In this document: positions 1,364 through 63,129 of the stretch, in pieces
Layout: every line of letters starts with the position of its first letter
Numbering within the stretch: position 1 is the stretch's first letter
Source of the DNA: Benincasa hispida
Taxonomy: Eukaryota; Streptophyta; Magnoliopsida; Cucurbitales; Cucurbitaceae
DNA length: 64,000 nucleotides
Assembly: GCF_009727055.1 (NCBI RefSeq)
Contig: NC_052349.1
Coordinates: 35,086,134-35,150,133, forward strand
Reading direction: 5' to 3'
Program-made: the position numbers and the translations under genes
Notes under the pieces: model-generated
The model's database searches: none
The model's input: only the letters and a program-made list of their open reading frames with translations
What the model was told of the DNA's origin: nothing

Positions 1364-2390
1364 ATTTCACTCTCTTCGAGTTGCTGGAAGGAACTAATTC
1401 CCTGTAAAGAAGAACATACGTGATTAATGGCTCCTAAATCAAATATCCAGGCATCATGGTCATTTTCCACTAAACAAGTTTCCAAAACAAGTAAATCATA
1501 TTTACCTTCTTTCTCTTTCTTCTTCTCAGCAAGGTATTTAGAGCAATTACATTTCCAGTGACCATCCACATTATAGTGGAAGCATTTGCCCTTGCCATCC
1601 TTAGTTTTGCCCTTGGCTTTCCCACCATTAAGAGCTTTCCCCTTCCCTTTTTTTTTTCTCTGGATCGTTTTAGAATCAGAGGTCGAAGGAACAAATTTAG
1701 TTCTAGAGGATGTATCCTTATGGAACTTTTTGGAATGGACAATATTTGCCTCTCATTCTACTGATCCCTTATCTTTCATAAGGGACTTAAAAGTCTGTAA
1801 CTCATTTAGAAGGGTAGTTAGATTGTACTGTATTTTGTTCATAATCGCATTGCTGTGGAATTGAAGAAAACTCGTGGGAAGAGATTCTAAAATAAAGGAC
1901 ACCTGACTCTGCTCTTCGATGAATGCACCGTTCATTTCGACGACTTGAACTAGACCATCAGGTCGAGAACATGTTCTCTCACTGATTAGCTTTCTTTCAT
2001 GTGCACATTGTAAATGTACTTGAGGATCACGTGTCGGATCAGAATGGACGATTGTCCAAACATCTCCTAGAGGGACTCCATGATTGTGACGTGCAGACAT
2101 CATGACCTCATGCTTCTTAGTAAGAACGTCAAACAAACTTGTCAAGATGTAGACTTGGGCCTTACCATTAGACTTCGTCCAATGGTCATAAGCATCCTTC
2201 AACGCTTGGGATGCATTTTGAATGGGGACTGGGGGACATTCCTTCGACAAGATAAACCATAGATCATCAATAACCAGAATCGTATTCAGGCTAGATTTCC
2301 ACGTCGTATAGTTTTCAGCGATTAATTTCTAATTTAGCAAAGATATGATTGTGGAAGACATGTTGAAACATACAACAATCAATTGACCGT
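1364..2390 (-). pseudogene. Copia gag/protease remnant
   Basis: Reading right to left from an ATG near 2360, the translation gives a UBN2-type copia gag core (about 2250-1753), a degenerate CCHC zinc knuckle (near 1560, with one Cys replaced by Tyr) and the beginning of a protease-like segment in which the catalytic DSG motif reads DLG. Several frame changes and stops separate the pieces. The same order of motifs occurs in the plus-strand elements at 13600-14560 and 44890-45930. The reading frame runs straight into LTR sequence at 1363, so integrase, RT and RNase H are missing. It is not expected to make a functional protein. Confidence 0.75.
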
Positions 2391-13589: not shown

Positions 13590-14560
13590 TGACTAGCTCA
13601 TTAGTTCAACTACTGACTTCTAAAAAATTAAACAGAACTATACAACATGGAAATCAAATCTAAACATGATACTAGTAATCGATGATCTTAGGTTCATCTT
13701 AACTGAGGAATGTCCTCCAAATCCTAGCTCGTCGACTAACCAAAATGTTCGACAGTCTTATGACATATGGATTAGGGCAAGTGATAAGACCCGAGTCTAT
13801 ATCTTAGTGAGTATATATGATATTCTAGCTAAGAAATACGAGGGCATGGTCACCGCTAAAGCGATTGTGGATTCGTTGCAGGCAATATTTGAACAATCAT
13901 CTTCATTTGTTAGGCACGATGCTCTTAAATACATTTATAACTCCCACATGAAGAAATCAACCTCTGTTAGAGAACAACATGTTCTGGATATGATGGTACA
14001 CTTCAACATAGCGGAGGTAAACGGTGTTGTCATAGGTAAAAAAAGTTCGGTTAGTTTCATTATGGAATCTCTTCCGAAGAGTTTCCTATAGTAATGCACT
14101 AACGCGATGATGAACAAGATTGAATACAATCTAACTACTCTCTTAAACGAGCTCTTGACATACCAGTCTCTTATAAAGACTAAAGGACAAGAAGAGGGAA
14201 GCAAATTTTGCTACCTCAAAGAAGTTCCAAAAGGGATTGTCCTCAAGAACTAAATCTAGACCTTTTACCTCAAATAATAAAAGTATTCAAATTAAAAAGA
14301 AGGGAAAAGGAAAGGCAAGACTCCTACAAATCGCAAAAGCAAGGGAAAAACTACAAATAAAGGAAAATGTTTCCACTGCAACGAAGATGGGCATTGGAAA
14401 CGAAACAGCCCAAAGTACCTTGTTGAGAAGAAAGCTGAGAAAGCAAAACAAGGTAAATATGATTTACTTATTGTTGAAACATGTCTAGTGGAGAATGATA
14501 ACTCCACCCAGATACTAGATTCAGGGGCCACTCACGATGTTTGTATTTTTTTTCTAGAAA
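13590..14560 (+). pseudogene. Copia gag to protease start, broken
   Basis: A gag core (13666-14091) carries the UBN2-like words Y-D-I-L-A-K-K-Y-E and S-F-I-M-E-S-L-P-K-S-F-L and ends in a stop at 14089. The reading continues in other frames to a zinc knuckle, C-F-H-C-N-E-D-G-H-W-K-R-N-S, at about 14365-14410, in which the last Cys is Ser. It then reaches the protease motif L-D-S-G-A-T-H (about 14515). The start region around 13592 is frameshifted. Non-functional. Confidence 0.8.
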
Positions 14561-17926: not shown

Positions 17927-18555
17927 AGTATATAGACTTGAGATTTCAGGACGATTTGATCGAACATGGAATCTAGTCTCAGCTCTCAACACTCAATACG
18001 CCTCAATAGAATGGTGTATCAGAAAGGGGAAATAGAATCCTGTTGGACATGGTTCATTCTATGATGAGCTATGCTCAATTGCTTGATTCGTTTTGGGGAT
18101 ACGCAGTAGAGATTGTTGTTATAATTTAAACATGCTTAATTCCAAAAGTATTTCTGAAACACCCTATGAGTTATGGAGATGGCGTAAAGGTAGTTTATGT
18201 CACTTCAGAGTTTGGGGATGTCTTACATATTTGTTGGTGCAAAATCCAAAGTACTTGGAACATCATTCAAAATTCTGCATGTTCTTAGGATACCCCAAAG
18301 AGATGAAAGGTGGTTTGTTTTATGATCCTCAAGATAACAAAGTGTTTGGATTGACAAACGTTATGTTCTTAGAGGAAGACCACATGAGAGATCATCAACT
18401 TCGCAGTAATCTAGTATTTGGTGAAATTTCCAAAGAAGCTAAATATAAATCAACAAGAGTTGTTGATCAGGTCGATTCTTCAACAAGAGTTGTTGATGAA
18501 GTTGTGGTCTGTCACATCCTTCTCAAGAGTTGAGAATTCCTCGACGTAGTGGGAG
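17927..18555 (+). pseudogene. Copia integrase C-terminal part and linker
   Basis: The region begins with D-L-R-F-Q-D and I-E-H-G-I of the integrase core. After a stop it continues (18093-18533) with the conserved T-P-Y-E-L-W, then F-R-V-W-G-C, F-L-G-Y-P-K-E and the hydrophilic linker with two S/T-R-V-V-D repeats. The frame is cut by the solo LTR at 18556. A stop at 18531-18533 lies just before. Confidence 0.8.
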
Positions 18556-25290: not shown

Positions 25291-25389
25291 ATGATTGCGA
25301 GAGTGAGACGTGAGAGCGAGTGTAGTAAATATCCGTACGACTCTGCGCGCCTTAACAGTTTTGAGTCCTTCTCAGCATCCATCGTATGA
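25291..25389 (+). other. Candidate upstream ORF (32 codons)
   Basis: ATG at 25291 opens a 32-codon frame ending TGA at 25387-25389, in the probable 5' leader of the PI-PLC X-domain gene. It does not overlap the main start. Whether it is transcribed depends on the true start site. Confidence 0.3.
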
Positions 25390-25544
25390 ACTCGCTTTTC
25401 GTTTCTTCAAAGTCTTTCCTTTCAATCTCCACTTCTCTTTTCAATTTTCTTTCTCCATTTTCCCACCTACATTCCCGGAAAGTTTTAGCCATCTTCCCGG
25501 CAATATTCCCGCTCTGAAAAACGCTTCTTTCCCTCTTCCACTTA

Positions 25545-28500
25545 ATGGGGCTTCCTCATTTCTTCCAGAGATTACTTCCAGCAGTCCTTCTGTTCCACAT
25601 TCTCTTTCTCTTCGATTCTTCTTCATCCTTTCGGGTTCGTTTCCCCCTTCATTCCATGACCCACTTCCTTTTTCCTTTCCAATTGAATGTGTTTCTCTGT
25701 TTCTTCTTCAGGAGGGACGAACTTGTATTGTGAACAGAAACTGCGACGCCGGATTGCATTGCGAGACCTGCTTCGCCGACGGCAATGTCCGCCCCCGCTG
25801 CACTCGAATCCAGCCGATCAGTCCGATTTCAAAGGTCTGTAATGTAACAGCGCTCTGTTTATTTCTGTTTTTTCTGCGATTGTGGGTTTTTTTTTTTTTT
25901 TTTATTTTGGGGTTATTGGTATTTTTGGAGCAGGTGAAGGATCTTCCGTTTAATCATTACGCATGGTTGACAACCCACAACTCTTTTGCGAAATTAGGGG
26001 CGAAATCGGCTACTGGGTCTCTGATTCTTGCTCCCACGAATCAGCAGGACTCCATTACTAGCCAGCTCAATGTACGTTACCTTACTGTCTTTCCTTTTCT
26101 GCTTCGTTATTGTTGTTTCTTTCTCCTGTTTGGGTTGTGGAATATTCGAGCGAAGAGTAAAGTAGAACCTGGAAAAGGATATGTAACAATTCTGTAACGT
26201 TTATTGGGCGGGATAGCGGTCAGTCTTATCGTTCCTATAGTTGAAAATTACATCGGTTTTTGTATGTTCGGTTCACCTGCCCTGAAAGCGAACCTCTTCT
26301 ATTGCTTATTGTCTCTAACTGGAAAGGCCAAAACCCCTTTTGTTTTTTCCCTCCTTCAACCTAATTTACTACCATTTGCACACTTTTTTCAGATGGAATT
26401 AAAATTAGAGCGAGTTTGTTCATTGTTGAGAATGTATTGATGTGTGTAGAAGCAAAACAGAAATCTTGGAAAATTAAGGAAAAATGTATGCTAAAAATGG
26501 TAACATCCCCTTTGAGAAAAAAATAATAAACTTTGTTTGGATTGGATTGAGTTGGAATATGATGATTAATGGGTCTTCAGTTGATATCTTTTCCAAAATT
26601 TGTCAGGATTCGCTGATCCAGCTAAAATTATTTTCTTAAAAAAGACAACATACTTTTTCTTTTTCTTTTTTTATTTAGAAAATTCTTTCAGAACTCTGGG
26701 CCTTTTTGGAGCTTTTTAACATTCCAACTAAATAATTAGTTTATGTACTTAAAATGCTGTATATTCTATTCAACTACTGACTACTGTTTTTAATTCAACG
26801 TGTAGAAATGGGTAAGTAGATAGAATATTATTGAAAAACTTTTCAGAAAATATTTTAGAAAATGACCCAAATGACCAGAAAATTCCTGCCTAAAGGCCTC
26901 AACTTATAAAGTTGAACTGAATTGTTCCCATATCTTGTATCATTTTAAACTAGACAAATTTTCTGCCCTAATAGTTTAATTGAATCTCAAAACATTTATT
27001 CAACCCAGCTGAAATAGGAGCTGTGGTGGCTCCAAAAACTGAAGGAGAAGGACAATTCCCCCTTATATTTGTCTCATATATATTCGCACATATAAACTTT
27101 ACAATTTAAATGTTTTCCTTCATGCCTCCCTTTAATAGTTAGAATTAAAAATTATATGCATAAAAAATAAGTAAAGTTTGATTGAAAAATTAATGATCCT
27201 GCTCCGCCTGTGAACAGTTCTATTTGGAGTGCTAGCCCTGTTTTTAGGTTGCTTTATTTTAAATGAAAGAAACATGAAAATCTTTGCTTGACAGCCCAAC
27301 TCAGCCGATATCTTGACCTAAAAAGTTCAGTAAGATTTTTTTCCACTACTCATATTATAAATAATGGTTAGGCGTGTGGTTTCTGGTTTATTCCTCTATT
27401 GTTTTTTCATTTTTGGTGCAAGCGTGACTCAGTCACTTGAATATGCCACTCTTTTTTGTCTTATTCATTTTCAAATAAGCATATGGCCTCTCTCTCTCTC
27501 ACATGTTCTTGTGAATCTTTTGGTCCTAGTATGTAAGAGATTCTCTCTCTCATGTGCTGGTGATTTTTTAGTCCTAGTTCTCTATTTTAATTGGGAGGAA
27601 AGATAAGGGTCGCTTGGCAACTACTTAAACTACATTGTTTAATGATCTCTCTTTACTCTTGCAGAAGGCAATTGAGGTTCATGTTGCTATCAAGAATAAG
27701 CAACCCTGAAAGAATGATAAATCTTTAAGCAAAAGCTAGCTAAAAAAAGTTAAAAACTTTTTAGGATTGGTTTCATAACCTTTTTTGTTCTGTCTTTCCT
27801 TACCCAAATGAATTCGATCATGACAACTTTTTATTGGGTTCTGTGTGAACTGCTCAAGAGATGGGTGGAGACTAGACTGCACCAAAGTTTTTTTTTTTTT
27901 TTTCCTATTATATATATATATGGTTATATATGGTTCCTGGAGACCACCTTCCTCCTCTTTTATTTATTTATTTATTATTAATATTATTATTATTATTATT
28001 ATTAATTTTTTTTTTTTTTGCCTTTTCTAATCTGGTTAAAATTTGAAAATGAAATCTAAAAAATAGTAGTATACATCCTTCTTTAAAAAGCAGAAAATTA
28101 AAGGCGGAATTATTGTGAGGCAGGGTCTTACTTTTGGAATATCTTGATGACCCTTTTAGTTTTTAACGAGAAGGAACGCGAGATCAATTTTAAGACAAAA
28201 GAAAAAATCATAATTTTAATGGGATTGTCATTTTTAGAGCAATTCGTAATCATATTAACAGTTTAGTATATTTTAGTGACTTTCACTTCAAATGAAGTGG
28301 CTTGATAAAAGTTGTGTGAATTAGATTAGATGGATACTGAGTAACTAGAATTCTCTACCCTTTGAACAATACTAGACGAATACGATACAATTTCGAATGT
28401 TTCTTCACCGCATATTGATTATTAATAAGCCTGTGTACTACACTTTTTGATGTTCAATTTTCATTTTGCAGAATGGTGCCAGAGGGTTTATGCTTGATAT

Positions 28501-29896
28501 GTATGACTTTGAAAACGATATATGGTTGTGTCACTCTTTCGGAGGCCAATGCTACAACTATACAGCTTTTGTAAGTGTGCATATTGCAGACTGTTAATTT
28601 GGTGGTCTGAAAATTGGCTTGATATTCCTTCATTTCCTCGTTTATGTTATTTTGAACAAGTTCATGCAAATACTTTCAATGACCAGCAACCTGCCATTAA
28701 TGTTCTCAAAGAGTTCCAAGCATTTCTTGAAGCAAACCCATCGGAAATCGTTACCATCATCATCGAAGACTATGTCACGTCACCAAAGGGTCTAACTAAT
28801 GTGTTTGGTGCTGCTGGTCTGAGAAAATTCTGGTTTCCAGTATGGAGAATGCCCAAGAATGGTGGAGATTGGCCCACAGTTAGCGACATGATCCAGAAAA
28901 ACCAACGTTTGCTCGTTTTTACTTCAAAAGCGGCAAAAGAAGCCTCTGAAGGAATTGCATATGTTTGGAAATACATGGTAGAAAACCAATGTAAGCTCAT
29001 TTTCATACTTGAGTAGACTGAATAAAACTTGGAGAATCCAATAGCTTTTCTTATTGATTCAACCATTCCACAGATGGGGATGGAGGAATGAGAGCAGGTT
29101 CATGCCCGAACCGAGGAGAATCACCACCGATGAACACGACTTCAAGGTCGCTTGTAATTGTAAATTTCTTTAGAACTGCTCCAAATTTCCCTGAAGCTTG
29201 CAAGGACAACTCTGCTCCATTACTCAACATGGTGAACACCTGCTATAATTCAGCAGGAAATAGATGGCCTAACTTCATTGCTGTTGACTTCTACAGGGTA
29301 ACTAACTACAAAACTAAACCATTAAATCAGTTGCTTCAAATTTCTCTGAAACTGATGACCGATGTATATACTCAACATAGTTCAATTTGGTATGAAAATA
29401 TTTCAGAGAAGCGATGGGGGAGGAGCTGCCGAAGCCGTCGATGTAACGAACGGTCACTCTGTTTGTGGATGTCCAAACATTTCAACTTGCAAGGTTAGTG
29501 ATTACTACTATACTACAATCACTATGGGAACTTCTTGCAATCTCTGAACATAGTTAGTTCGGAAAGCATTGAGAGATAAAGATTGAACGTAGAAGAAGAT
29601 TAAGAAAACAAATGAAAACAATGGCATTGAAACTGAAAAATGGTCTAGGTAACCATTTTTCTAGCATTTTAAGATGTCAAAAAGTTTGGTTTTGATGGAT
29701 CATCATACAGGAAAACATGAGATTTGGGGCCTGTGAGTTACCTGAGGCAATTGATGCAGCAACATCATCATCAGCAGCAGCAGATGTGCAAAACAGCTCC
29801 GCCGAATCAAAATGCAGATTAGCTCAATTGTTTGCTTTGACGGCCACATTACTTGCTGCACTCTTTCTCCTGTCACTCCAGGAATTTCATGTTTAG
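25545..29896 (+). CDS. PI-PLC X-domain-containing protein, eight coding exons, GPI-anchor-like tail
   Basis: Coding exons by GT/AG sites and protein continuity: 25545-25634, 25712-25834, 25934-26071, 28472-28570, 28687-28990, 29074-29297, 29407-29493 and 29711-29896, giving 416 residues. Residues 1-29 form a hydrophobic signal peptide. A Cys-rich stretch follows (C35, C41, C47, C50, C60). The phosphodiesterase X-domain starts near residue 76; H86 (in W-L-T-T-H-N-S-F) and H138 (in W-L-C-H-S-F-G-G) match the two general acid/base histidines of bacterial-type PI-PLC. R121, D126 and the later W-P-T-V and L-L-V-F-T-S blocks are also typical. The tail (residues 391-412) is hydrophobic after a Ser/Ala-rich segment, which suggests a GPI anchor at the cell surface. 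There is no Y domain, EF-hand or C2 domain, unlike the classical plant PI-PLC. The family resembles Arabidopsis At5g67130-type proteins; substrate is unproven. Intact and probably functional. Confidence 0.93.
26072..28471 (+). other. Long intron 3 (2.4 kb) of the PI-PLC X-domain gene
   Basis: The donor is AAT/GTACGT and the acceptor TTTTGCAG/AATGG. It separates the first histidine exon from the second. It is T-rich, holds TATTTATT/ATTATT microsatellites at 27958-28005 and no recognised transposon. ORFs at 26204-26440, 27364-27606 and 27845-28030 are accidental. It is much longer than the other introns (about 80-220 bases). Confidence 0.85.
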
Positions 29897-31204
29897 GATA
29901 GTTCTTCAATACCCTTTCAAGTAATTTAAAGGTTTTTTTTCCCTTTCCTACATGATAGATGACTATATGTTAAAAAGAACTCGGAAAAAGTTCAAAAATA
30001 TTTAAAAGTCTTACAATGAAACTGCCAGTTTGGTAGTGGTTTTAAAATGATTAAAATTACTTCGATATATATCTTTGATTATTTTGTCGCTTCAATGTTT
30101 TACTTTGCACTTTTAAATGCAAAATTTTTACGGTCAAAATTAGTTGTAAATTATTAAAAGTAAATTATGGACTTATTTTAAAAATGATAGAAGTGATTTT
30201 AACAATATCAAATTACTTCCAACATCTTTTTAATCATTCAAAATCAATTTAATATTCTATTTTACACTTTTAAACTACTTTTTATACATGATTTTGAGTG
30301 ATCAAAAGATATATTTGAGACTGATCTTGAATCTAACAAAATTGATATCGATCATTTCAAAACTACGGCCAAACAAAATTTTGGAAGGACTCTCAACCCC
30401 AAAGTGATTCAAGTTCTTAAATTTGAAAATCGTACTTGGATTTTAACTTACATTTTTTTTTTTAGTTCATCTAACATCTAATATATGTCTAAACCATTTG
30501 AGCTATGGTTCGCTATCTTATGAGATTTTGCATTTATGCAATTTTCGTCATTGTGTTTGATTTTGAGGAATTGGTGTAAGGTCACATTTACCCCGACTAT
30601 AAAATAATAAATCAATGGTAATAGAAAAGGTGGGTCAATTTGATTGTTTTTTGTGTTGTTTACTTATGTTTTGCATTTGTATTAACACATGAAACTACTT
30701 CCAAATTTATAAGGGGAAAAAAAAAAAACCAAACTGGTTGACAAACGTGCTCAATTTAATTGCGTCTACCATTACCATTATTATTACTGTTCTAAAGAAA
30801 AAATTATGAATTTTGACACATTTACAGTTATCGTTATCATTTAACTATCAAAGGTAAATATAAGAAAATTCATAATTTCAAGTAAACACAATCCAATTAC
30901 ATTTATAATTCAGATTCATTACAATTGATCCATAAATGAGAACTCGTTATAATTATACCAATTTTTATTACAATTTGGTAAACTTGACCAAAGTTTCTCC
31001 ACCAACCATGTGGATGAAAGGAATGCAAGTTAAAATAACTCTTGTTCAAGAAATAAAAAAAAATAAAAAAAATCTTCTGAATTTTTAGTCACCAACCCAT
31101 TTTGTCAACATACATTTTCCTTGAGTTAATTCTATACAAGTTGAGGTGACAAAAGAATATGTTTTTCCCCATTAATTTTTGCTAAACAAATCATTTAAAA
31201 AGAA
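29897..31204. other. Intergenic region between two convergent genes
   Basis: AT-rich non-coding DNA. It holds the 3' ends of both genes but no clear AATAAA at the expected distance. No ORF, repeat family or RNA gene was recognised. Confidence 0.6.
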
Positions 31205-33211
31205 TTAAAAAATTTTGAATTTCTTTTTCTTTCTTTCCTTTCCCTCTCTTTGTTTCCTTCCCCATCGTCGTAGCCACCCTTTTCTACGCTTAGATTTGGA
31301 ACACCGACCACTACCGCCGTCCTTAACTACATCCACCGCCCTCCTCCGCCGTGGTTTGGAATGCCAACAACCACAACATCGCGTAGAATTAGAATGATCG
31401 GTGTCAGCCACCACGCCCGTAACGCCGGCGGCATCCACCACCTCATTATGAACTTCCGAAACGCCATTGTCGACCAACCCTTCTTTTTCATGCAATTTTG
31501 CAATGCTAACAGATTCCTTCTTTCTCCCTCTGCACATGTCTAGTGTTGGTAGCCACCCACAGATCTGGAATCCCCAACCTCCTTCCCTAGATTTTGGACT
31601 CCGGCGGTGTTGGCGGCGACTACCCTCTTTTCCCCCAAGTTTGAAACACCGGCAGCAACCACCTTCATCCTCCTGGTTCAAATCTGAAACACCAGAATCC
31701 ACAATTTCCTCCTGGTTCAAATCTGGTTCAAATGTCTCCTGAATGCTGCCGGAAGACGCATTCTCTTCCTTACCGGCAGACATCTTCTCCTCCGTACTTT
31801 GAACTGGAATGTCGTCGGCAGCCACCTGTTTTTCCTTGCCGTCATCTGGAATGCCGTCAGCCACTGCAATGCTCTCTTTCTGAGGATCTGGAATGACAGC
31901 AACAACCTCCTCCTTTTGAACGTCGGGAGGCGCCTTTTCTTCTTCCTCTCGATGATTTGAAGCATCAACGGTGATCCTTTCCCCACACAGAAAAAACCTA
32001 GGCAACCATCCTCTTGTGCAGATCTGGAATGGCCAACAAATTCCCCCTTGAGTAGATTTGGAATGCCATTCCTCATCGGCAGCAACCACCTCCTCCCCCT
32101 CCGGCGGATCTGAAACAGAGACAACCACTTTCTCTTCCCTGCCTGGATTTGGAACTTCGGAAACCGCATTCCTCCTCCGCCCGCAGATGTGTAATGTCGG
32201 CATACATTTAAAACAACTGCAGCAGCCACCACTCCCTTCTTTCTGCAAATCTGGAACGTCGACGTTTGAAGAATCTTCAGACGCCAGCGCCTCCTTCTCG
32301 AATGTCTTTGGATTGTCGTCCACTGTTTTCCTCCCTGCGCAGCAGATGTGGGATTGGAATGCTTGTAAGCATTCCACTGAATCGCCCTCTTGCTTGTTTA
32401 CCTTATCATTAGCCACTTCTTCTTCTACCTCTGGAACATCAACAACCGCCTCTTCCTTGCTGGCCACCACATTCCTCCTCCTGCAAATCTGAAACGCCGG
32501 GAAACATCCACATCGTCCACAACAGCAACCACTCCCCTCCTCCTTACGCAGATCTGAACCGCCGACGACGACGACTTCCTCTTCCTTCACCAAATCTGGA
32601 CCACGATTAGCCACTTCCTCCGTCCGCAGATTCGGATCGTCGGTAACCGCTCCATCCTCTTTTTGAAGAACAACTATGCTTTTTCTTCTCCCGCAGATCT
32701 GGAACGTTGGGAAACACCTGCAACCACACCCGTCCTTTTCGAGAACATCGCTGACAGCCACCACCGTCTCCTCCTCCCGCAGATTCGAAACGACGGTAAC
32801 AACCTCTACCTCTGAACCATTGGTAACCACCTTTCTCTTCCTTAGAGAGAGATGGAATTTTAATGCACACTCCCGCCGCGTAGATTTGGAACTTTGCCAA
32901 CAACAACAACCAGCTCGCGCAGATATAGAATCATCCACAGCCTGCACTCTGTCCTTCGGAACATCGGCGACAACTGCCCCACCATCCTCTGACGAATCAA
33001 AAACGACGACAGGGGTCCTTACAACGGGGCGATTGCCATTAACAGGTTTAGATTTGGAATTGGCATCGTTGCAAGAACCTGAATGACCGACTGAGTTTAG
33101 CCATTTAGTGAAAGTGGGCAATTCCTCCATCTGGAGGTTCCTCCGTTGGCGGGGCTTCCTTGATTTCGGTTCTTCCATTTGCTTATCAGTGGTCATAAAA
33201 AAATCGACCAT
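31205..33211 (-). CDS. Cysteine-rich, internally repetitive protein of unknown function (668 aa)
   Basis: An open frame of 709 codons runs without a stop; the first in-frame ATG is at 33211 (the upstream 41 codons begin with GTG and include 18 serines encoded by a GAA/TTC microsatellite, so I exclude them). The 668-residue product alternates acidic, Val/Glu-rich spacers with about nine basic Cys-rich blocks, at about residues 102, 161-177, 228-247, 281-295, 328-348, 389-412, 517-528, 545-565 and 611-624. A typical block reads GCGCRCFPTFQICGRRK. The C-terminus is Lys/Arg-rich. No signal peptide, membrane segment or known catalytic motif was recognised. Such a long stop-free frame in AT-rich DNA, with higher local G+C, favours a real single-exon gene, possibly lineage-specific. 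It could be a metal-binding or lipid-modified protein, but that is a guess. The other strand has only short shadows. Confidence 0.65.
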   Translation of the reverse strand: MVDFFMTTDKQMEEPKSRKPRQRRNLQMEELPTFTKWLNSVGHSGSCNDANSKSKPVNGNRPVVRTPVVVFDSSEDGGAVVADVPKDRVQAVDDSISARAGCCCWQSSKSTRRECALKFHLSLRKRKVVTNGSEVEVVTVVSNLREEETVVAVSDVLEKDGCGCRCFPTFQICGRRKSIVVLQKEDGAVTDDPNLRTEEVANRGPDLVKEEEVVVVGGSDLRKEEGSGCCCGRCGCFPAFQICRRRNVVASKEEAVVDVPEVEEEVANDKVNKQEGDSVECLQAFQSHICCAGRKTVDDNPKTFEKEALASEDSSNVDVPDLQKEGSGGCCSCFKCMPTLHICGRRRNAVSEVPNPGREEKVVVSVSDPPEGEEVVAADEEWHSKSTQGGICWPFQICTRGWLPRFFLCGERITVDASNHREEEEKAPPDVQKEEVVAVIPDPQKESIAVADGIPDDGKEKQVAADDIPVQSTEEKMSAGKEENASSGSIQETFEPDLNQEEIVDSGVSDLNQEDEGGCCRCFKLGGKEGSRRQHRRSPKSREGGWGFQICGWLPTLDMCRGRKKESVSIAKLHEKEGLVDNGVSEVHNEVVDAAGVTGVVADTDHSNSTRCCGCWHSKPRRRRAVDVVKDGGSGRCSKSKRRKGWLRRWGRKQREGKERKKKKFKIF

Positions 33212-33336
33212 GGAAGAGGAAGAGGAAGAAGAAGAAGAAGAAGAAGAAGAAGAAGAAGAAGAAGAAGGAAACTGAAAGAGAAAGAAGCAATTGGCAATGG
33301 AAAGGACTCTGAAAATTGGGAATGAGGTTCCCACAT
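33193..33336 (-). other. Upstream ORF overlapping the start of the Cys-rich gene
   Basis: An ATG at 33336-33334, in a different frame, opens a 47-codon ORF whose stop (about 33193) lies 18 bases beyond the main ATG at 33211. It reads through the microsatellite as a run of Leu. If the transcript starts upstream of 33336, scanning ribosomes would meet it first. Confidence 0.4.
33217..33268. repeat. GAA/TTC trinucleotide microsatellite
   Basis: About 12-14 units of GAA on the plus strand directly upstream of the main ATG of the minus-strand gene. Length variation would alter the leader or, if translated, a Ser or Leu run. Confidence 0.9.
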
Positions 33337-33396: not shown

Positions 33397-33405
33397 CATA
33401 TTTAT
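33397..33405 (-). promoter_or_regulatory. Possible TATA element of the Cys-rich gene
   Basis: The minus strand reads ATAAATATG in an otherwise AT-rich upstream zone. If used, transcription would start near 33370 and the upstream ATG at 33399 would be outside the transcript, but the one at 33336 would be inside. Confidence 0.25.
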
Positions 33406-34958
33406 TTTCTATTTTTGAAATGCCACGCTACACAGAATTACTTCATAACTCTTTTTTTTTAGTTAAAAACAAAATTTTAATCCTTTTCCCCGTAATTATC
33501 AAAAACAAAAAACAAACAACTCTCTCCAATGCTTTTAAAAGTTAACTTTTACACACGTTTCAAAATTAGAAATTTCAATGTGCGTTGACCTAGAAGAATA
33601 TTTCACATCATCACATCAATTCAAGTCATAGAAACCCTGTTTTAAATCTTAATTTCAACTTAAAAAAATATAAGCCTATTTTTTAAGAAGATTTTCAAAA
33701 TTAAAAAAAAAAAAGAAAAATAATTTACACAAAAAATAATCTTTTTTCAATAGAGGTTATCGAAAGTTTATTAGTGTCTATCAATAAAACAAAATGATAG
33801 AAGTTCATCATTGATAATATGCGATAGATATTTATAATATTTTTTTGTTATTTCTGCAGTTTCATATTTTTTTTATTGGTGAAATTTTTCCTTTTTTTAA
33901 CACTGTGTATGATTTTAGTTCTTTTTCACTTAAATATTTTAATGGTAAGAAAAATAAAAAATATATTTTATAATTAATAATGTTGTTTTTATTAATGTAT
34001 TTAATTGAGTAAGTTGAATTTATGGTTTTAATTTTATGGACTTGGGTTTAAACTAAAACAGAGGATGAATAATGTATTTTATTAGTTCTATTTCTATTTT
34101 TCTAAAAAAAAAAAATGTGACTAATTTGGGTATTATCGTCACTCACAAGACAAATTTGGTAATTGTGTTTTCTTTTTAAGAATAATAGGAAAGAGTATTA
34201 GTTGGTTCTAATTTTAGTACAAAATAAAAGGTTCTACTTTTTGATGTATAACATTTTTTAGCGGGATTTGAGAAATTTTCACGTTCTAGATTGAGTGTTT
34301 TTTTATGGCTAGATTTAATTGACTTATTGAGCCCTTTTTTAGGGGGGAAAAAGTTTTGGGTTAAATGGTTATAATTAGCATTTATAGTTTATAATTAAAA
34401 TAGTCATTATGATGGAATAAAATCATAATAAATAATCTCCGGCGTGTTTCTACCCATCCATAAAGACTATTTATAAGATTTTTATCAAATCATAGAGACT
34501 AACTTTTATTTTTTATTTTTTAATTCTACAACTAAATTTATAGTTTAACCAATAATTAAAAAAAAAAGTTAAAAATATCATTTTGGTCATGTAGTTTAAA
34601 GTTTGTTTAAATTTAGTCTCTACTTTCAGATGTTTAATTTTAGTAACTAAACTTTGAATAAATATTAATTTTTGTATCTACTACTAGTTTATTGTTGATT
34701 TCTTAAAAAACTTATATTCTCTACTAGTATTTTTACTTATAAATTTTGAAAATATATTATATATTACAATTTTTTTTTGCATGAAAATTATTATTATTAT
34801 TATTATTTTTGAAGTCAATTTTGATACAAATTAATTTTAAGAGACTACATTTAAGAATTAGACTATGGACCAAAATTGGACTGAACCAAGGGAGACACCG
34901 TACCATCAAGACTCAAATCTGAAACCCAACAATGCAATTATAGATTTGAGAATGAAAC
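33406..34958. other. Intergenic AT-rich DNA
   Basis: Holds homopolymer runs and an ATT microsatellite (about 34789-34807). I see no gene, TE ends or RNA gene in it. Confidence 0.6.
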
Positions 34959-36784: not shown

Positions 36785-37693
36785 GATATCAATGTCCCTT
36801 ATCCTCAGTTGGTGGTAACCTAATCATAGGCCAATCTTGGAAAATACAGTAGCTCCTTGTATCTAGTCAAACAAATCATCAATCTTGGGAAGCGGGTATT
36901 TATTCTTGATGGTTACTTTATTCAATTCCCTGTAGTCTATGCATAAGCGTAACGATCCATCCTTTTTCTTTACGAATAACATCGGTGCACCCCAAGGAGA
37001 TACACTAGGCCGTATGAACCCTTTATCAAGCAGTTCCTGAAACTCGACCTTCAGTTTCTTCAATTTGGCCGGAGCCATTCTGTACGGATCTTTGAATATG
37101 GGAATAGTGACTGGCTTCAACTCGATCACAAAATCAATCTTTGTGGGTGGAGGCAAACCTGAAAGTTCTTCTAGAAACACATCGGGGTATGCTCTCACAA
37201 CTGGTTCTAAGGTTAAAGAAATCTCAGTTTCCTTGGTGTCAACTACGCTAGCCAAGATACTTCTGGTATTTTGGCTAATCAACCTCTTGGACTTCACAAC
37301 TGAAATCACCTTGGGCAAGACTACAGTCTTGGCCCCCTTGAACTTAAAGTTGGCTCCCCTATGAGGGTTAAATATCACTTCCTTATGAGAACAGTCTATA
37401 TTGGCATGATTGACACCCAACCAATCCATGCCCAAAATCACATCAAAGTCACGCATGTCTAACACTATTAGGGTCACATCAAGAGTGTGGTTCGCCATTT
37501 CTAACTGACAAGCTTTTATCTTTTCGCTTGCTATCATAATTTCTCCTGACAGAGTAGACACTGATAACACATAACCCAAGGGCTCTAAAACTAGCATAGC
37601 ATGCTTGAACAACGATGAAATGAAAGAGTGAGACAAGCCAGAATCAAATAACACTAAAGCATAGTGCCCCAAGACTGGGAGCATACCTGTCAC
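36785..37693 (-). pseudogene. Gypsy protease and reverse transcriptase N-terminal part
   Basis: The retropepsin-like segment reads [12 protein letters not shown], then [10 protein letters not shown] (residues near 20 and 90 of the 276-codon frame). RT begins at the [10 protein letters not shown] segment and continues through [17 protein letters not shown] to P-K-I-D-D-L-F-D. A stop follows at 36863. After it G-Y-H-Q-L-R-I-R-D is readable to about 36785, and then sequence switches to LTR. The YVDD region is absent. Confidence 0.85.
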
Positions 37694-38960
37694 TACTGTT
37701 CCAGAATGCTCAGCTTCTCGGCGGTTGGTGGCATAGACCCGACCATGCTACTGCTGTCAATTTGAACTACCTTGATGCGAACTCGAGGGCTGACCCTCTG
37801 TACTTCAGAACCAATACTAGGGTATTGGTCCGCCGTATGCCCTACATGCTTACATCTAAAGAAAGTCCCTGTGTCGATCAGACAACGTCCCTAATGACAC
37901 TTCCCACATGACTTGCACACCGGTCTATCCCTTCAGACTCCTCCTGAATGTGCCCTAGTGACCTGTCTGTGCTTTGAACCTTCTGCGGAGGCCTCGGTGC
38001 TTTCTGTTCACCTTTCCACTTCTGACCTCGAGTAGATTCTTTCGTCAAGGACATTAGAAACTCTATCCCTGAGGGACAACCCACACATGCTGTCGTTCAA
38101 AAAGCTGTTGCATAGGTGGGAAGCTCAAGAGCTTGCACAATACCTCGCACCCCGTCCCAAAGTCCATGCACAAATCTTTTAGCCCTTTTTGCTTCAGTGG
38201 ACACTAGATTAAGGGCGAGGCAAGATAGTCTGTCAATCTTCTCCTCGTACTCCTCTACTATCATGGTCCCCTGCTTCAGATTCATAAACTCAGTCTGCTT
38301 GTTATACCTCATGTGAGTAGAGAAGTACTTCTCGTAAAACCGCTCTTTGAACTGGTCCCAGGTTGCTTGGCCCCCACTAGCTTTTATCATTCTTTCAACT
38401 GAGCGCCACTAGCGCTTGGCATTATCAACAAGAACAAAGACAACACATTGCAACTTCTGCTTTTCTAGGTACTTCATGTACTGAAAAATCCCTTCCACAG
38501 TGGACAACCATAACCTTGCTTTAGTGGAGTCTTTTAGAGACCCATTAAATGTCGGAGGTCATCCTTCTTGAAGTTTCATAGATATCCAGCGTCCAAGGAA
38601 GAGCCTTCCACAGTGTGACTCGGTACCCTAACTTGATTCTGAACTTGTGGTGTCGGGGCCAGCGAGAATGACACTTGTTGTGACTGTGCGTGCTGAGCTA
38701 TTTGCTCAGCCACAATATCCCTTAGTTGCCCTACCACAGCTTGTGTGACGACATTCCCAATAGTTGCAGCCATGGCAATGTACTCTACTGGAATCTTTGA
38801 GGAGGACGATCCTGGCGGGGGCACAATCGAAGTTCGAGGCCCGCTCCTTGGTCTAACCCATTGCCAGATTAACCTAGAAGGGTCAAGAGGCAACGAGTCC
38901 CGCCTTCTTGGATTTGCACCTCAGGGTCTTGTACGTTAAGGTTCTGCTCCCCAACTACAT
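37694..38960 (-). pseudogene. Gypsy gag remnant
   Basis: Retrotrans_gag-type words W-D-Q-F-K-E-R-F-Y-E-K-Y-F-S and V-E-E-Y-E-E-K-I-D-R-L-S lie at 38390-38097. The N-terminal, Pro/Ser/Gln-rich part is at 38893-38576. A zinc-knuckle-like zone with C-K-x-C-G-x-H text (about 37910-37840) is degenerate. Stops separate all parts. Confidence 0.75.
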
Positions 38961-44756: not shown

Positions 44757-47700
44757 ATTACTCTTCGATGGCTTTTATCCTAAATCGCTAATGTATCATT
44801 GTAAAAATTAGATGTCACATATGGTACATTAAAATTTTGCTAAACTTAATTGGTTTTAATAGGTTATGCATGTATCTAATATACATAACTTGAATGATTT
44901 CAACAAACTTCAAAATGACTAGGGTTACAATCAACTTGTTAAGTGTCGATAAATTAACTGGTGACAACTACACTAGTTGGAAAAATATGATCAATGCTAT
45001 ACTTATCATTGACTACCTCAGGTTTGTCCCATTTAAGGAGTGTCCTCAGGTTCCCCTTGCTAATTCATCTCGAAATGTTTGGAATACATATGAAAAGTGG
45101 ATAAAGGAAAATGAAAAGGTTAGAGTGTATATTCTTTCCAACACTAAAGTTTTGGAAAAGAAAAATGAATTCATGGTCACTGCATGAGAGATTATGGATT
45201 CATTGCGAGAGATGTTTGGACAACTATCCTCAAAGATCAAGCATAATGCTCTAAAGTTCATTGGTAATGCTTGTATGCAAGAGGGGTCCTCAGTACGAGA
45301 ACACGTTCTCAATATTACGGTCCACTTCGATGTGACTGAAATGAGCGGGGCTTGTCATTGATGAGGCTAGTCAAGTTAGCTTTATTCTGAAACCTCTGCC
45401 GGAGAGTTTACTATAGTTTCATAGCAATGTTGTTATGAACAAGCTAGATTACACCCTGACCACCCTCTTGAACAAGCTACAGACTTTCAAGTCCCTGATG
45501 AAAGTGAAGAGTCAAAAGGGAGAGATAAATGTTGCCACGTCCTCTAGGAAGTTCCATAGAGGTTCGACCTTTAGAACTAAGTTTGTACCATCTTCATCTG
45601 GCACTAGGAAGTGAAAGAAGAAGAAAAGAGGTTAGGTGAATAAAACTAAGAAGAAAAAAAGAGGTTAGGTGAATAAAACTAACCCTGCTGCAACCAAGAA
45701 GGGAAAGAAGGCCAAGATTGCCAAAGGAAACTATTTCCACTACAACTAGAAGAGACATTAGAAACGAAACTGTCCCAAGTATTTGGCGGAGAAAGAGAAG
45801 GTCAACCAAAGTAAATGTAATTTACTAGTTTTAGAAACTTGTTTAGTAGAGAATGATGATTCGACCTGGATAATTGATTTAGTGCCCACTAATCACGTTT
45901 GTTCTTCTTTTCACGGAGTTAATTCCTAGCAGTAGCTCGAGACTGACGAGATGACGATGCAGGTTGGAACAAGACATGTTGTTTCACTAGTGGCTATAGG
46001 AGGCATAAATTTTCTCTTCCAGAAATATTTTCTTGTTTTGAACAATGTGTATATGGTTCTTGGTCTGAAAAGAAACTTGATTTTTGTGTAGAGTAATTTA
46101 TTTGTGCTAAGGTCGTTAGCAACTAAAGCACTTCTTAATACTGAAATATTTAGAACTGCAGCAAGTCAACGTAAAAGATAAAAAATATTTCTCCTAAAGA
46201 GAATGCACATCTTTGGGATTTGAGATTATGTCACATTAATCTCAATAAGATTGAGAGATTGGTCAAGAGTAGACTTCTAAGTGAGTTAGAAGAAAACTTT
46301 TTACCTATATGTAAGTCATGCCTTGAAGGCAAAATAACAAAAATCCTTTTACTGGAAAAGATTATAGAGCTAAAGAACATAAAATTTGTACATTCAAACC
46401 TCTGTGGTCCTATGAATGTTAAGGCAAGAGAAGAGTTTGAATATTTCTTCTCTTTCCTAGATGATTATTCAAGATATGAGTATCTTTATCTAATGCAATA
46501 CAAGTCTGAAGCTCTTGAAAAGTTCAAAAAGTATCAGGCTAAAATTGAGAATTCATTGAGTAAAACAATTAAAACACTTCGATCGAATCAAGTTAGAGAT
46601 ATTTGGATTTAAGATTCCAAAACTATATGATAGAACATATAGTTGCATTCCAACTCTTGACATTTGGTACACCTCAGCGAAATGGTCTATCAGAAAGGAG
46701 AAATAGAACATTGTTAGACATGGTTCGGTCTATGATGAGTTATACTTATTTACCTGATTTGTTTTAGGTTATGCAATAATGACTGCAACTTATATTTTGA
46801 ACAATATTCCATCCAAAAGTATTTATGAAATTTCTTTGGAATTATGAACAGGTTGTAAAGGTGGTTTACGAAGCTTCAGGATTTGGGGTTGCCAACACAT
46901 GTGCTCGAGGAAAATCCAAAGAAATCGAAATCTCGTTCAAAGTTATGCCTATTTGCATGTTATCCCAAAGAAACGAGTGGTGACTACTTCTATGACTCTA
47001 AAGAAAATAAAGTATTTAAGTCGACAAATGATATATTTTTAGAAGAGGGTCACATTAAGGAGCATAACCGCGTAGTAAAATCGTGTTGAATGAGCTTTCC
47101 AGTGAAACTACTAAAACTTCAACAAGAGTTGTTGAAAAGGATAATACATCAACAAAAGTTGTTGATGTTGGTTCATCTAGTCAAGCACATCCACCTCAAG
47201 AGTTGAGGGTGCCTTGGCATAGTGGGAGGATTCTAAAACTACCTGCTCGTTATATGGGTTTAATAGAAACTTTAACCATCATATCAGATGGCGACATTGA
47301 GGATCTATTGATCTATAAATAGGCAATGAATGATGTCGACCAAGATGAATGGGTTAAGGCTATGGATCATAAAATGGAGTTTATGTACTTCAATTTAGTC
47401 TAGGATCTTGTAGGTCAACCTGATGAGATAAAACCTATAGGTTGCAAATAGATCTACAAGAGGAAAAGAGGTGTAGATAGTAAGGTGCAAAGCTTTAAGG
47501 CTAAACTGGTGGTAAAATGTTATACATAGGTTAAAGGAGTGGATTATGTAAAAACTTTCTCACCTGTTGCCATGCTTAAGTCTATCCAGATTCTTTTGTC
47601 CTTTGCCACATATTATGACTATGAAATATGGCAAATAAACATCAAGACTGCTTTTCTGAATGGAAATCTTGAGAAGACCATCTACATGTAGCAACCAGAT

Positions 47701-60799: not shown

Positions 60800-61741
60800 T
60801 TAATACCTCATAACCCGTTTGGCTGCTATCCAATGATCCATCCCCGGGTTACTCAAATATCTGCCTAACACTCTAACTATGAACGCAATATCTAGACACG
60901 TGCATACTTTAGCATACATTAGACTTCCAATGGCTAATGCATAAGGAACCTTCGACATCTTCTTAGTCTCGAGTGTGGTCTTGGGGCATTGACCTAAATG
61001 AAATTTATCACCTTTAGCAATCGGGGTATTTCCTGGCGCACAATCTTTCATGTCAAATCTACTCAAGACCTTTTCAATGTAGTTCTTTTGTGACAATCTC
61101 AAAATACCTTGAGAACGATCTCGCAGTATTTCAATTCCTAATAGAAAAGAAGGATCACCAAGATCCTTCATCTCAAAATTTCTTTTGAGAAATCTCTTAG
61201 TGTCATGCAATAAACCTACATCATTACTAGCTATGAGTATGCCATCAACATATAACACCAGAAAGATTGATTTACTCCCACTGAACTTGTGATATATACA
61301 ATCTTCCACAATGTTCACCTCAAAAACAAATGAGGTTATCACTTTATGGAATTTGTGATACCATTGACAAGACACTTGCTTGAGATCGTAGATGGATTTT
61401 TTTAATTTGCACACCATAGACTTTGAATTACCAGACACAAAGTTTTTTTATTACACCATATAAATCGTCTCATCAATGTTCCCGTTGAGAAATGCAGTTT
61501 TTACATCCATCTGGTGTAGCTCTAAATCAAAGTGAGCTACTAGTGCCATGATTACCCTAAAAGAGTCTTTCGATAAAACCGAAGAGAAAGTCTCTTTGTA
61601 ATCAATGCCTTCCTTTTGAGTAAAACCCTTTGCAACAAGACGAGCCTTATATCTTTTAATATTGCCATGTGAATCCCTTTTGGTTTTAAATATCCATTTA
61701 CAACCTATGGGTTTCACTCCTGATGGCAGTTCGACAAGTTC
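60800..61741 (-). pseudogene. Copia reverse transcriptase with altered active site
   Basis: RT runs from K-P-I-G-C-K-W-I-F-K (61710) through D-V-K-T-A-F-L-N-G to K-K-S-I-Y-D-L-K-Q and the catalytic motif. The motif reads Y-V-D-G-I (61253-61239) in place of Y-V-D-D, so the second catalytic Asp is Gly. A frame break at 61440-61452 separates two long open stretches. Otherwise this is the best-preserved pol in the window. Confidence 0.85.
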
Positions 61742-62302: not shown

Positions 62303-63129
62303 CTAGATATGAAGATGCCTAATACTAGGCTTCTTTCCTATCCACAGCTCATAAGGGGTTTTAACTACTGCTTTACTAGGTACCCTATTAAGGATATATG
62401 TTGAAGTTTTTAGTGTCTCACCCCAGAGGGATTCTGGTAGAGAAGAATGGCTAATCATACTTCTTACCATATCCTTAAGTGTTTTATTTTGCCTCTCCGC
62501 TACACCATTCATGCTGGGTTTGCCCAACATATTGTATTGTGGGACGATTCCACATTCTTTTAGGTATTTGGCAAAGGGCTCTGGACATTGTCCACCTGAT
62601 TCATCATATCTACCGTAATATTCACCACCACGATCAGATTTGACAACCTTAATTTTCTTTCCAAGTTGAAGTTCGACTTCAGCTTTGAAAGACTTGAAAA
62701 TGTTCAAGGATTGATACTTGTCATGAATTAAATATAAGTACCCATATCTTGAATAGTCGTCTATGAAGTAATAAAATATTGTTATCCATTCCAAGAGGTC
62801 GTAGGGAATGGACCACAAATGTCTGTATGTATTAGTTCTAAAACGTCTGAGCATCTGTTGGTACCTAATTTTCTTATGTTTGTCTGTTTTCCCTTAATAC
62901 ATTCCACACAAACGTTGAAGTTACTTAAATCAAGGGAATCAAGAATTCCATCTGACACAAGTCTCTGAATTCTCTGTTTAGAGATGTGACCTAAATACTT
63001 GTGCCATATCATAGCAAAATTCTCATTTAATTTACGCTTTGTACTACATGAATTAGATAACAGGATCTTGTTAAATGAAGCAAAAGAAATCAAGCATATA
63101 TAGATTATCAATTTAAAGAACTGGTACAA
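62303..63129 (-). pseudogene. Copia pre-integrase and integrase core
   Basis: The pre-integrase zinc-binding segment (W-H-K-Y-L-G-H, then C-x-x-C-I-K-G-K) is at 63129-62880. The integrase core shows [15 protein letters not shown] and [11 protein letters not shown] with the expected third acidic residue. A frame overlap at 62782-62854 shows a frameshift between the two. Confidence 0.85.

What the first reader, a model, noticed from the sequence alone, without database searches (positions are those of the whole stretch)
31205..33211. Long stop-free ORF for a nine-block cysteine-rich repeat protein with no recognised family
A 668-codon single-exon frame between transposon arrays shows alternating acidic spacers and basic CC-x-C-F-x-x-P-x-x-Q-I-C-G-R-R-type blocks. 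This modular layout suggests growth by internal duplication and looks unlike any family I can name. Blocks range from full to worn. I infer a lineage-specific gene, and it is the best candidate here for something undescribed.
Basis: partly seen in the sequence, partly recalled or inferred. Interest (0 to 1): 0.75.

Follow-up and report, generated by a model that had tools for sequence, protein, structure and literature searches.

The report
Gourd-family cysteine-block repeat protein
This looks like a real but undescribed protein gene of the gourd family, built from positively charged cysteine-rich blocks set between mostly negatively charged linkers, with a block number that differs between relatives; its job is unknown, and our best guess is that the blocks stick to membranes.

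Summary
The frame is on the minus strand (ATG 33211, stop 31205), 668 codons, in wax gourd (Benincasa hispida), where it is already annotated without function as LOC120072275. Relatives keeping the frame exist in Cucurbita moschata, C. maxima, C. argyrosperma and unnamed assemblies. Three protein searches named no relative outside Cucurbitaceae; this protein matches no Pfam family and no solved structure credibly.

Nine cysteine clusters, mostly basic, alternate with mostly acidic spacers. B2, B3 and B5 are clearly one repeat, B8 more weakly; others are worn or unproven. Strong core matches number 3 here and 7, 8 and 10 in three Cucurbita proteins, with three identical blocks 64 residues apart in C. 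maxima. Blocks are better conserved than spacers in 4 of 4 comparisons; cysteines stand out clearly in 2 of 4.

I infer a disordered cytosolic protein held to membranes by many S-acylated cysteines beside basic residues (about 0.4; inference only). Metal/redox and nuclear roles are rivals. dN/dS on 115 inferable codons was 0.56 (0.28-1.14): not decisive.

The parts
31205..33211 (-). Coding frame, 668 codons plus stop, MVDFFMTTDKQ...KKKKFKIF; Benincasa hispida LOC120072275
33194..33196 (-). Second ATG (M6); the annotated Cucurbita proteins P0005, P0007 and P0010 start at about the aligned place (MATTDKQ/MATDKQ), so it may be the ancestral start
   Evidence: sequence; alignment
33213..33267 (-). 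(TTC)n microsatellite just upstream of the ATG, probably in the 5' leader (inferred)
   Evidence: position inferred
33398..33406 (-). AATAAATAT, TATA-like, about 195 bases upstream of the ATG (consensus match only)
30964..30969 (-). AATAAA poly(A)-like signal about 235 bases after the stop (consensus match only)
32816..32920 (-). Block B1, residues 98-132, GCCCW...RREC...SLRKRK; largely invariant in the relatives aligned
32675..32734 (-). Block B2, residues 160-179, CGCRCFPTFQICGRRK
32462..32533 (-). Block B3, residues 227-250, CCCGRCGCFPAFQICRRR
32324..32377 (-). Block B4 (worn, homology unproven), residues 279-296
32162..32230 (-). Block B5, residues 328-350, CCSCFKCMPTLHICGRRR
31967..32044 (-). 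Block B6 (second type), residues 390-415, CWPFQICTRGWLPRFFLCGER
31571..31666 (-). Block B7, residues 516-547, CCRCFKLGGKEGSRRQHRR
31508..31585 (-). Block B8 (second type), residues 543-568, WGFQICGWLPTLDMCRGRKK
31328..31384 (-). Block B9 (homology weak), residues 610-628, CCGCWHSKPRRRR
31208..31327 (-). Strongly basic C-terminal tail, residues 629-668, net +16
31668..31725 (-). 39-base segment with an exact 19-base direct repeat (CAGATTTGAACCAGGAGGA) at its ends; skipped in the public protein model, with no GT-AG boundary in any of 20 equivalent placements

Best explanation
A real, apparently single-copy and intronless protein-coding gene restricted, as far as found, to the gourd family. It encodes a probably disordered, soluble protein without a membrane-spanning or signal-like hydrophobic stretch, made of basic cysteine/aromatic blocks (core P-[TAS]-F-x-[IM]-C-G-R-[RK]-K, usually after CC or CxC) separated by mostly acidic linkers that hold a short degenerate motif. 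Shown: the frame, the charge pattern, the repeat relation of several blocks, higher conservation of blocks, and copy-number change. Inferred: cysteines beside basic and hydrophobic residues are S-acylated, so that each block is a weak reversible membrane foot, several feet together hold the protein on the cytosolic face of a membrane, and the acidic linkers stay off the membrane and recruit partners. Changing block number would tune avidity, which would tolerate the gains and losses seen.
For: Relatives keeping the frame and plan. Blocks more conserved than spacers in 4 of 4 comparisons (circular shifts reaching the observed count: 13/616, 5/594, 2/630, 10/639). Cys identity above overall identity in 4 of 4, with permutations reaching it in 2662 (P0002), 130 (P0003), 305 (P0007) and 10 (P0010) of 5000. 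Block charge rarely reached by circular shifts in 6 of 6 proteins tested: 8/667, 7/715, 10/618, 13/1005, 6/1132, 5/1201. Highest 19-residue hydropathy only 0.81. No confident fold, mean pLDDT 27.7 with 7 sequences. [quoted passage not shown] One locus in the genome.
Against: No acylation, localisation or expression datum was available. Cys conservation is unremarkable against P0002 (26 of 33; 2662/5000) and marginal against P0007 (305/5000); W/F are not specially conserved (identity 0.80, 0.65, 0.62, 0.64 against overall 0.77, 0.68, 0.57, 0.55). With automatic boundaries the charge alternation has exceptions in every protein tested. The tail, net +16, would serve as a nuclear signal as well as a membrane patch. 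CC/CxC also fit metal or redox roles. The dN/dS interval includes 1, and the stop-containing +2 frame gives a lower value, 0.34. Low pLDDT rests on a shallow alignment and does not prove disorder. B1, B4 and B9 are poorly supported as copies. Block boundaries were set by hand.
Confidence: 0.4

Rival explanations
1. A cytosolic or nuclear metal-binding or redox-sensing disordered protein: the CC and CxC clusters bind Zn/Cu, or form disulfides on oxidation and cross-link chains.
For: CC or CxC in most clusters, 35 Cys in 668 residues; basic tail that could act as a nuclear signal.
Against: The repeated core also keeps basic residues right after the last Cys, which simple metal binding does not need (recalled); no metal-site family matched this protein; no folded domain predicted.
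Confidence: 0.25
2. A nuclear, nucleic-acid- or partner-binding protein in which the basic blocks and tail bind RNA/DNA and the acidic linkers bind proteins or the blocks of another copy (condensate).
For: Blocks more basic than chance placement in 6 of 6 proteins tested; tail with net charge +16.
Against: Does not explain the Cys clusters at the blocks.
Confidence: 0.25
3. A chance or decaying open frame without a functional protein (an old gene under relaxed constraint, or a non-coding transcript).
For: dN/dS interval 0.28-1.14 includes 1; protein identity falls to 0.55 within one plant family; one relative (P0004) runs into another frame after residue 446.
Against: 0 of 1000 shuffles approached the length; simulated neutral substitution at 12% gave 8.6 stops on average and 0 of 2000 stop-free runs (18 of 2000 at 6%, 2 of 2000 at 9%); blocks are preferentially conserved; start region and tail are conserved between genera. 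Caveat: the protein searches see only predicted proteins, so broken relatives are under-sampled.
Confidence: 0.07

Closest known systems
Uncharacterized proteins LOC120072275 (Benincasa hispida), LOC111430613 (Cucurbita moschata), LOC111483201 (C. maxima), SDJN03_24523 (C. argyrosperma, named partial)
   Same: The same gene, and relatives sharing its ends and block plan.
   Different: The public wax-gourd model lacks 13 residues that the assembly encodes. Three Cucurbita proteins scanned (P0005, P0007, P0010) have 10-13 core matches, weak ones included, against 8 here.
S-acylated cysteine-cluster proteins (GAP-43, SNAP-25 cysteine string and similar)
   Same: Cys clusters beside basic or hydrophobic residues in a soluble protein (resemblance; PMC5364179, passages).
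   Different: No sequence relation found; about nine clusters along the chain with acidic linkers; acylation untested.
Metallothioneins and PLAC8/PCR-type cysteine-rich plant proteins (recalled)
   Same: CC and CxC motifs.
   Different: No Pfam match for this protein; basic core; length about 620-1200 residues.

Membership tests
Cucurbitaceae gene family of LOC120072275 | Shared amino end (EE[LF]PTFTKWL), GCCCW block, repeated core, basic tail | tested here: met
   alignments (P0004 lacks the tail after its frame change; P0011 lacks the amino end)
S-acylated multi-anchor protein (works like) | Cys clusters next to basic/hydrophobic residues, no membrane span | tested here: met
   hydropathy only, no dedicated predictor
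S-acylated multi-anchor protein (works like) | Thioester-linked acyl groups on Cys; membrane association | not testable with these tools
   needs acyl capture and localisation
Metallothionein / PLAC8-type | Profile match | tested here: not met
   0 Pfam families at E<=10 for this protein; among 5 relatives only P0010 had rows, LVIVD (just above cut-off) and DUF3913 (below), without a passing stretch
Secreted disulfide-rich protein | Hydrophobic signal peptide | tested here: not met
   best 19-residue hydropathy starting before residue 45 is -0.35; no dedicated predictor was run
Transposon-encoded protein | Multiple genomic copies or transposon domains | tested here: not met
   matches only at this locus (3 candidates scored in each); no Pfam domain

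The most novel reading that the evidence does not exclude
A gourd-specific multivalent membrane zipper that evolves by copy number: lipid-anchored Cys/aromatic/basic feet alternating with acidic linkers, whose avidity is tuned by gaining or losing blocks through unequal exchange between near-identical units.
Probability: 0.2. Interest if true: 0.6.

Novelty: new variant of a known kind. Interest (0 to 1): 0.4.

Why it matters
It is a fast-evolving gourd-family protein, undescribed in the papers searched, with a block count that differs between genera, so it is a tractable case of how a new modular protein grows. If the blocks are acylated feet, it would show how a plant lineage can build a membrane tether from repeats. 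It also suggests that public models of repeat genes may carry false small introns or isoforms.

Tried and rejected
Rejected: transposon protein (no domain, one locus); chance ORF; a functional second protein in the +1 frame, open for 226 codons (31717-32397): synonymous-codon shuffles of the gene give as long an open +1 frame in 117 of 1000, its dN/dS is 0.85 on 113 codons, and it has no Pfam match at E<=0.01. The +2 frame's longest open run (107 codons) is rarer, 3 of 1000 shuffles; not followed. Structure prediction gave no usable model, so no fold search was run. Searches of three frames of the neighbour did not confirm its family. Rfam gave 0 matches in the window. Paper searches: the gene identifiers gave 0 papers; one search gave 7 papers, each only for a guessed wax-gourd gene prefix; keyword searches (93 papers, 10 listed; 194, 10 listed; 16, 12 listed) were seen as listings, and of these only PMC9114813 and PMC5364179 were opened, for passages. 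The spacer motif was defined after reading the sequence, so its 0 of 2000 shuffles is optimistic. The conservation test used 4 of the 10 relatives held apart from the wax-gourd record itself (P0002, P0003, P0007, P0010); P0004 is frame-shifted, P0011 partial, P0005, P0006, P0008 and P0009 are Cucurbita proteins close to P0007; P0007 and P0010 share a genus and are not independent.

Full report
WHAT IS THERE. Window 31205-33211, minus strand, holds a 668-codon frame with 35 Cys and no Tyr. The genome search places the window at C1:35086134-35150133 of a 913-Mb assembly. A protein search identifies the gene with Benincasa hispida LOC120072275, 655 aa, which equals the frame minus 39 bases. In 1000 dinucleotide shuffles no open frame exceeded 309 codons. 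GC is 0.50 in the frame; the two kilobases mostly inside it have 0.447 and 0.514, the other 62 range from 0.240 to 0.476.

RELATIVES. Three protein searches (each scored about 8000 candidates at most) gave 11 proteins in all: the wax-gourd record, four isoforms of C. moschata LOC111430613, C. maxima LOC111483201, C. argyrosperma SDJN03_24523, and four without a name (P0002, P0003, P0004, P0011). P0011 is 87% identical over 391 columns to the C. maxima protein, so it is probably Cucurbita. No named protein from outside the family appeared, also not at E<=10 with the two alignment queries, the second of which covered shorter proteins. No named cucumber, melon or watermelon protein appeared either; I cannot tell loss from missing annotation. 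Candidates must share exact five-residue words, so distant relatives may be missed. Family libraries: 0 Pfam and 0 NCBIfam rows for this protein; weak rows for relatives are told above.

REPEATS. Nine clusters of two or more Cys. Of 36 block pairs, 8 were reached by none of 300 shuffles; B1, B4 and B9 are mostly unconvincing. A core HMM built from these same proteins gives, weak matches included, 8 matches in wax gourd, 9 in P0002 and in P0003, 10 in P0007, 12 in P0005, 13 in P0010 and 3 in the partial P0011; counting only matches with E below 1e-5, the numbers are 3, 4, 4, 7, 8, 10 and 2 in the same order (P0004, P0006, P0008 and P0009 not scanned). The C. maxima protein carries three identical copies of the 26-residue core at a spacing of 64 residues, which speaks for recent duplication; P0002 has a second copy of the B2 unit. 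That these gains were separate events is my inference. The spacers also repeat a short motif, [DN][LPHVQ]x(1-2)[KR][ED]: 9 in wax gourd against a shuffle mean of 0.9 (motif chosen after looking).

CHARGE. With automatic boundaries, blocks with net positive charge are 8/9 (wax gourd), 8/8 (P0002), 7/9 (P0003), 10/12 (P0007), 11/13 (P0005) and 13/15 (P0010); spacers with net negative charge 7/8, 6/7, 7/8, 7/11, 8/12 and 12/14. So the alternation is a strong tendency, not a strict rule. The same tendency is seen around single Cys: mean net charge within 8 residues is 1.23, reached by 32 of 667 circular shifts.

SELECTION. No relative's DNA was at hand. P0002 and P0004 are identical for 446 residues and then agree, as one gene read in two frames, at each of 114 positions tested, so 115 codons can be inferred, 110 uniquely. 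Against wax gourd: 13 synonymous changes on 72.3 sites, 29 non-synonymous on 272.7, dS 0.205, dN 0.115, ratio 0.56, bootstrap 0.28-1.14, 94.8% of bootstraps below 1. This stretch is block B6 and mostly spacer. The +1 frame gives 0.85 and the stop-containing +2 frame 0.34, so the ratio alone does not prove coding. Better evidence is the pattern of conservation: block/spacer identity 0.84/0.74, 0.75/0.64, 0.64/0.53 and 0.62/0.51 against P0002, P0003, P0007 and P0010; Cys identity 0.79, 0.85, 0.71, 0.80 against overall 0.77, 0.68, 0.57, 0.55, clearly above chance for P0003 and P0010, marginal for P0007, not for P0002. Aromatic residues are not specially conserved. Simulated neutral change at 12%, the divergence seen in the 115 codons, leaves 0 of 2000 frames open, with the caveat that broken relatives would not be listed.

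THE 39-BASE SKIP. The public wax-gourd model omits 13 residues that the assembly encodes. The skip fits 20 placements over an exact 19-base direct repeat, none with GT-AG ends. P0002 and P0003 keep related residues there, so the longer form is probably older. I infer either a repeat-mediated deletion in other cultivars or a template-switch artefact in cDNA; if the model rests on RNA reads, which I could not see, both imply transcription. Among the moschata isoforms, X3 lacks 51 residues and X4 lacks 70 and 55 residues compared with X1, while X2 shows no long gap; the same cause is possible.

MECHANISM. No membrane span or signal-like stretch by hydropathy, no confident fold (shallow alignment), basic Cys-bearing blocks between mostly acidic linkers. 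[quoted passage not shown] On this I commit, at about 0.4, to a peripheral membrane protein held by many acylated feet. Metal/redox and nuclear roles each keep about 0.25.

NOVELTY. The gene is annotated, but the identifiers LOC120072275, LOC111430613 and LOC111483201 occur in no paper of the held library, and keyword listings showed nothing on it. PMC9114813 (passages) catalogues orphan genes of eight Cucurbitaceae, wax gourd included; whether this gene is in its tables was not checked.

Noticed in passing
window 31717-32397, minus strand: A second, overlapping open frame of 226 codons in the +1 frame of the gene; the 113 codons comparable are stop-free in the relative behind P0002/P0004 too. 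Composition can explain it (117 of 1000 synonymous shuffles; dN/dS 0.85).
   Followed up: yes
window 31668-31725: Exact 19-base direct repeat around a 39-base segment that the public protein model skips without GT-AG ends.
   Followed up: partly
window about 25307-29498, + strand: Frames that read like exons of a plant PI-PLC X-domain-like protein (recalled; Pfam on three frames and PDB on one gave no significant match), convergent with the gene.
   Followed up: partly
window 1753-2328, 13624-14091, 18087-18533, 36863-37747, 46175-46612, 60800-61447, 62303-62893: Pieces of LTR retrotransposons: copia-type gag and reverse transcriptase, integrase-related pieces, and one with an RVP_2 protease.
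   Followed up: partly
Cucurbita moschata LOC111430613 (P0006-P0009): Isoforms X3 and X4 differ from X1 by skips of 51 and of 70 and 55 residues, possibly mapping artefacts of near-identical repeats.
   Followed up: partly
P0010 (C. maxima): Pfam LVIVD scores just above its cut-off (20.9 vs 20.2) but no single stretch passes; probably a low-complexity match.
   Followed up: no
P0004 (unnamed source), after residue 446: Identical to P0002 up to there, then continues in the +1 frame; allele, sequencing or assembly error cannot be told apart.
   Followed up: partly
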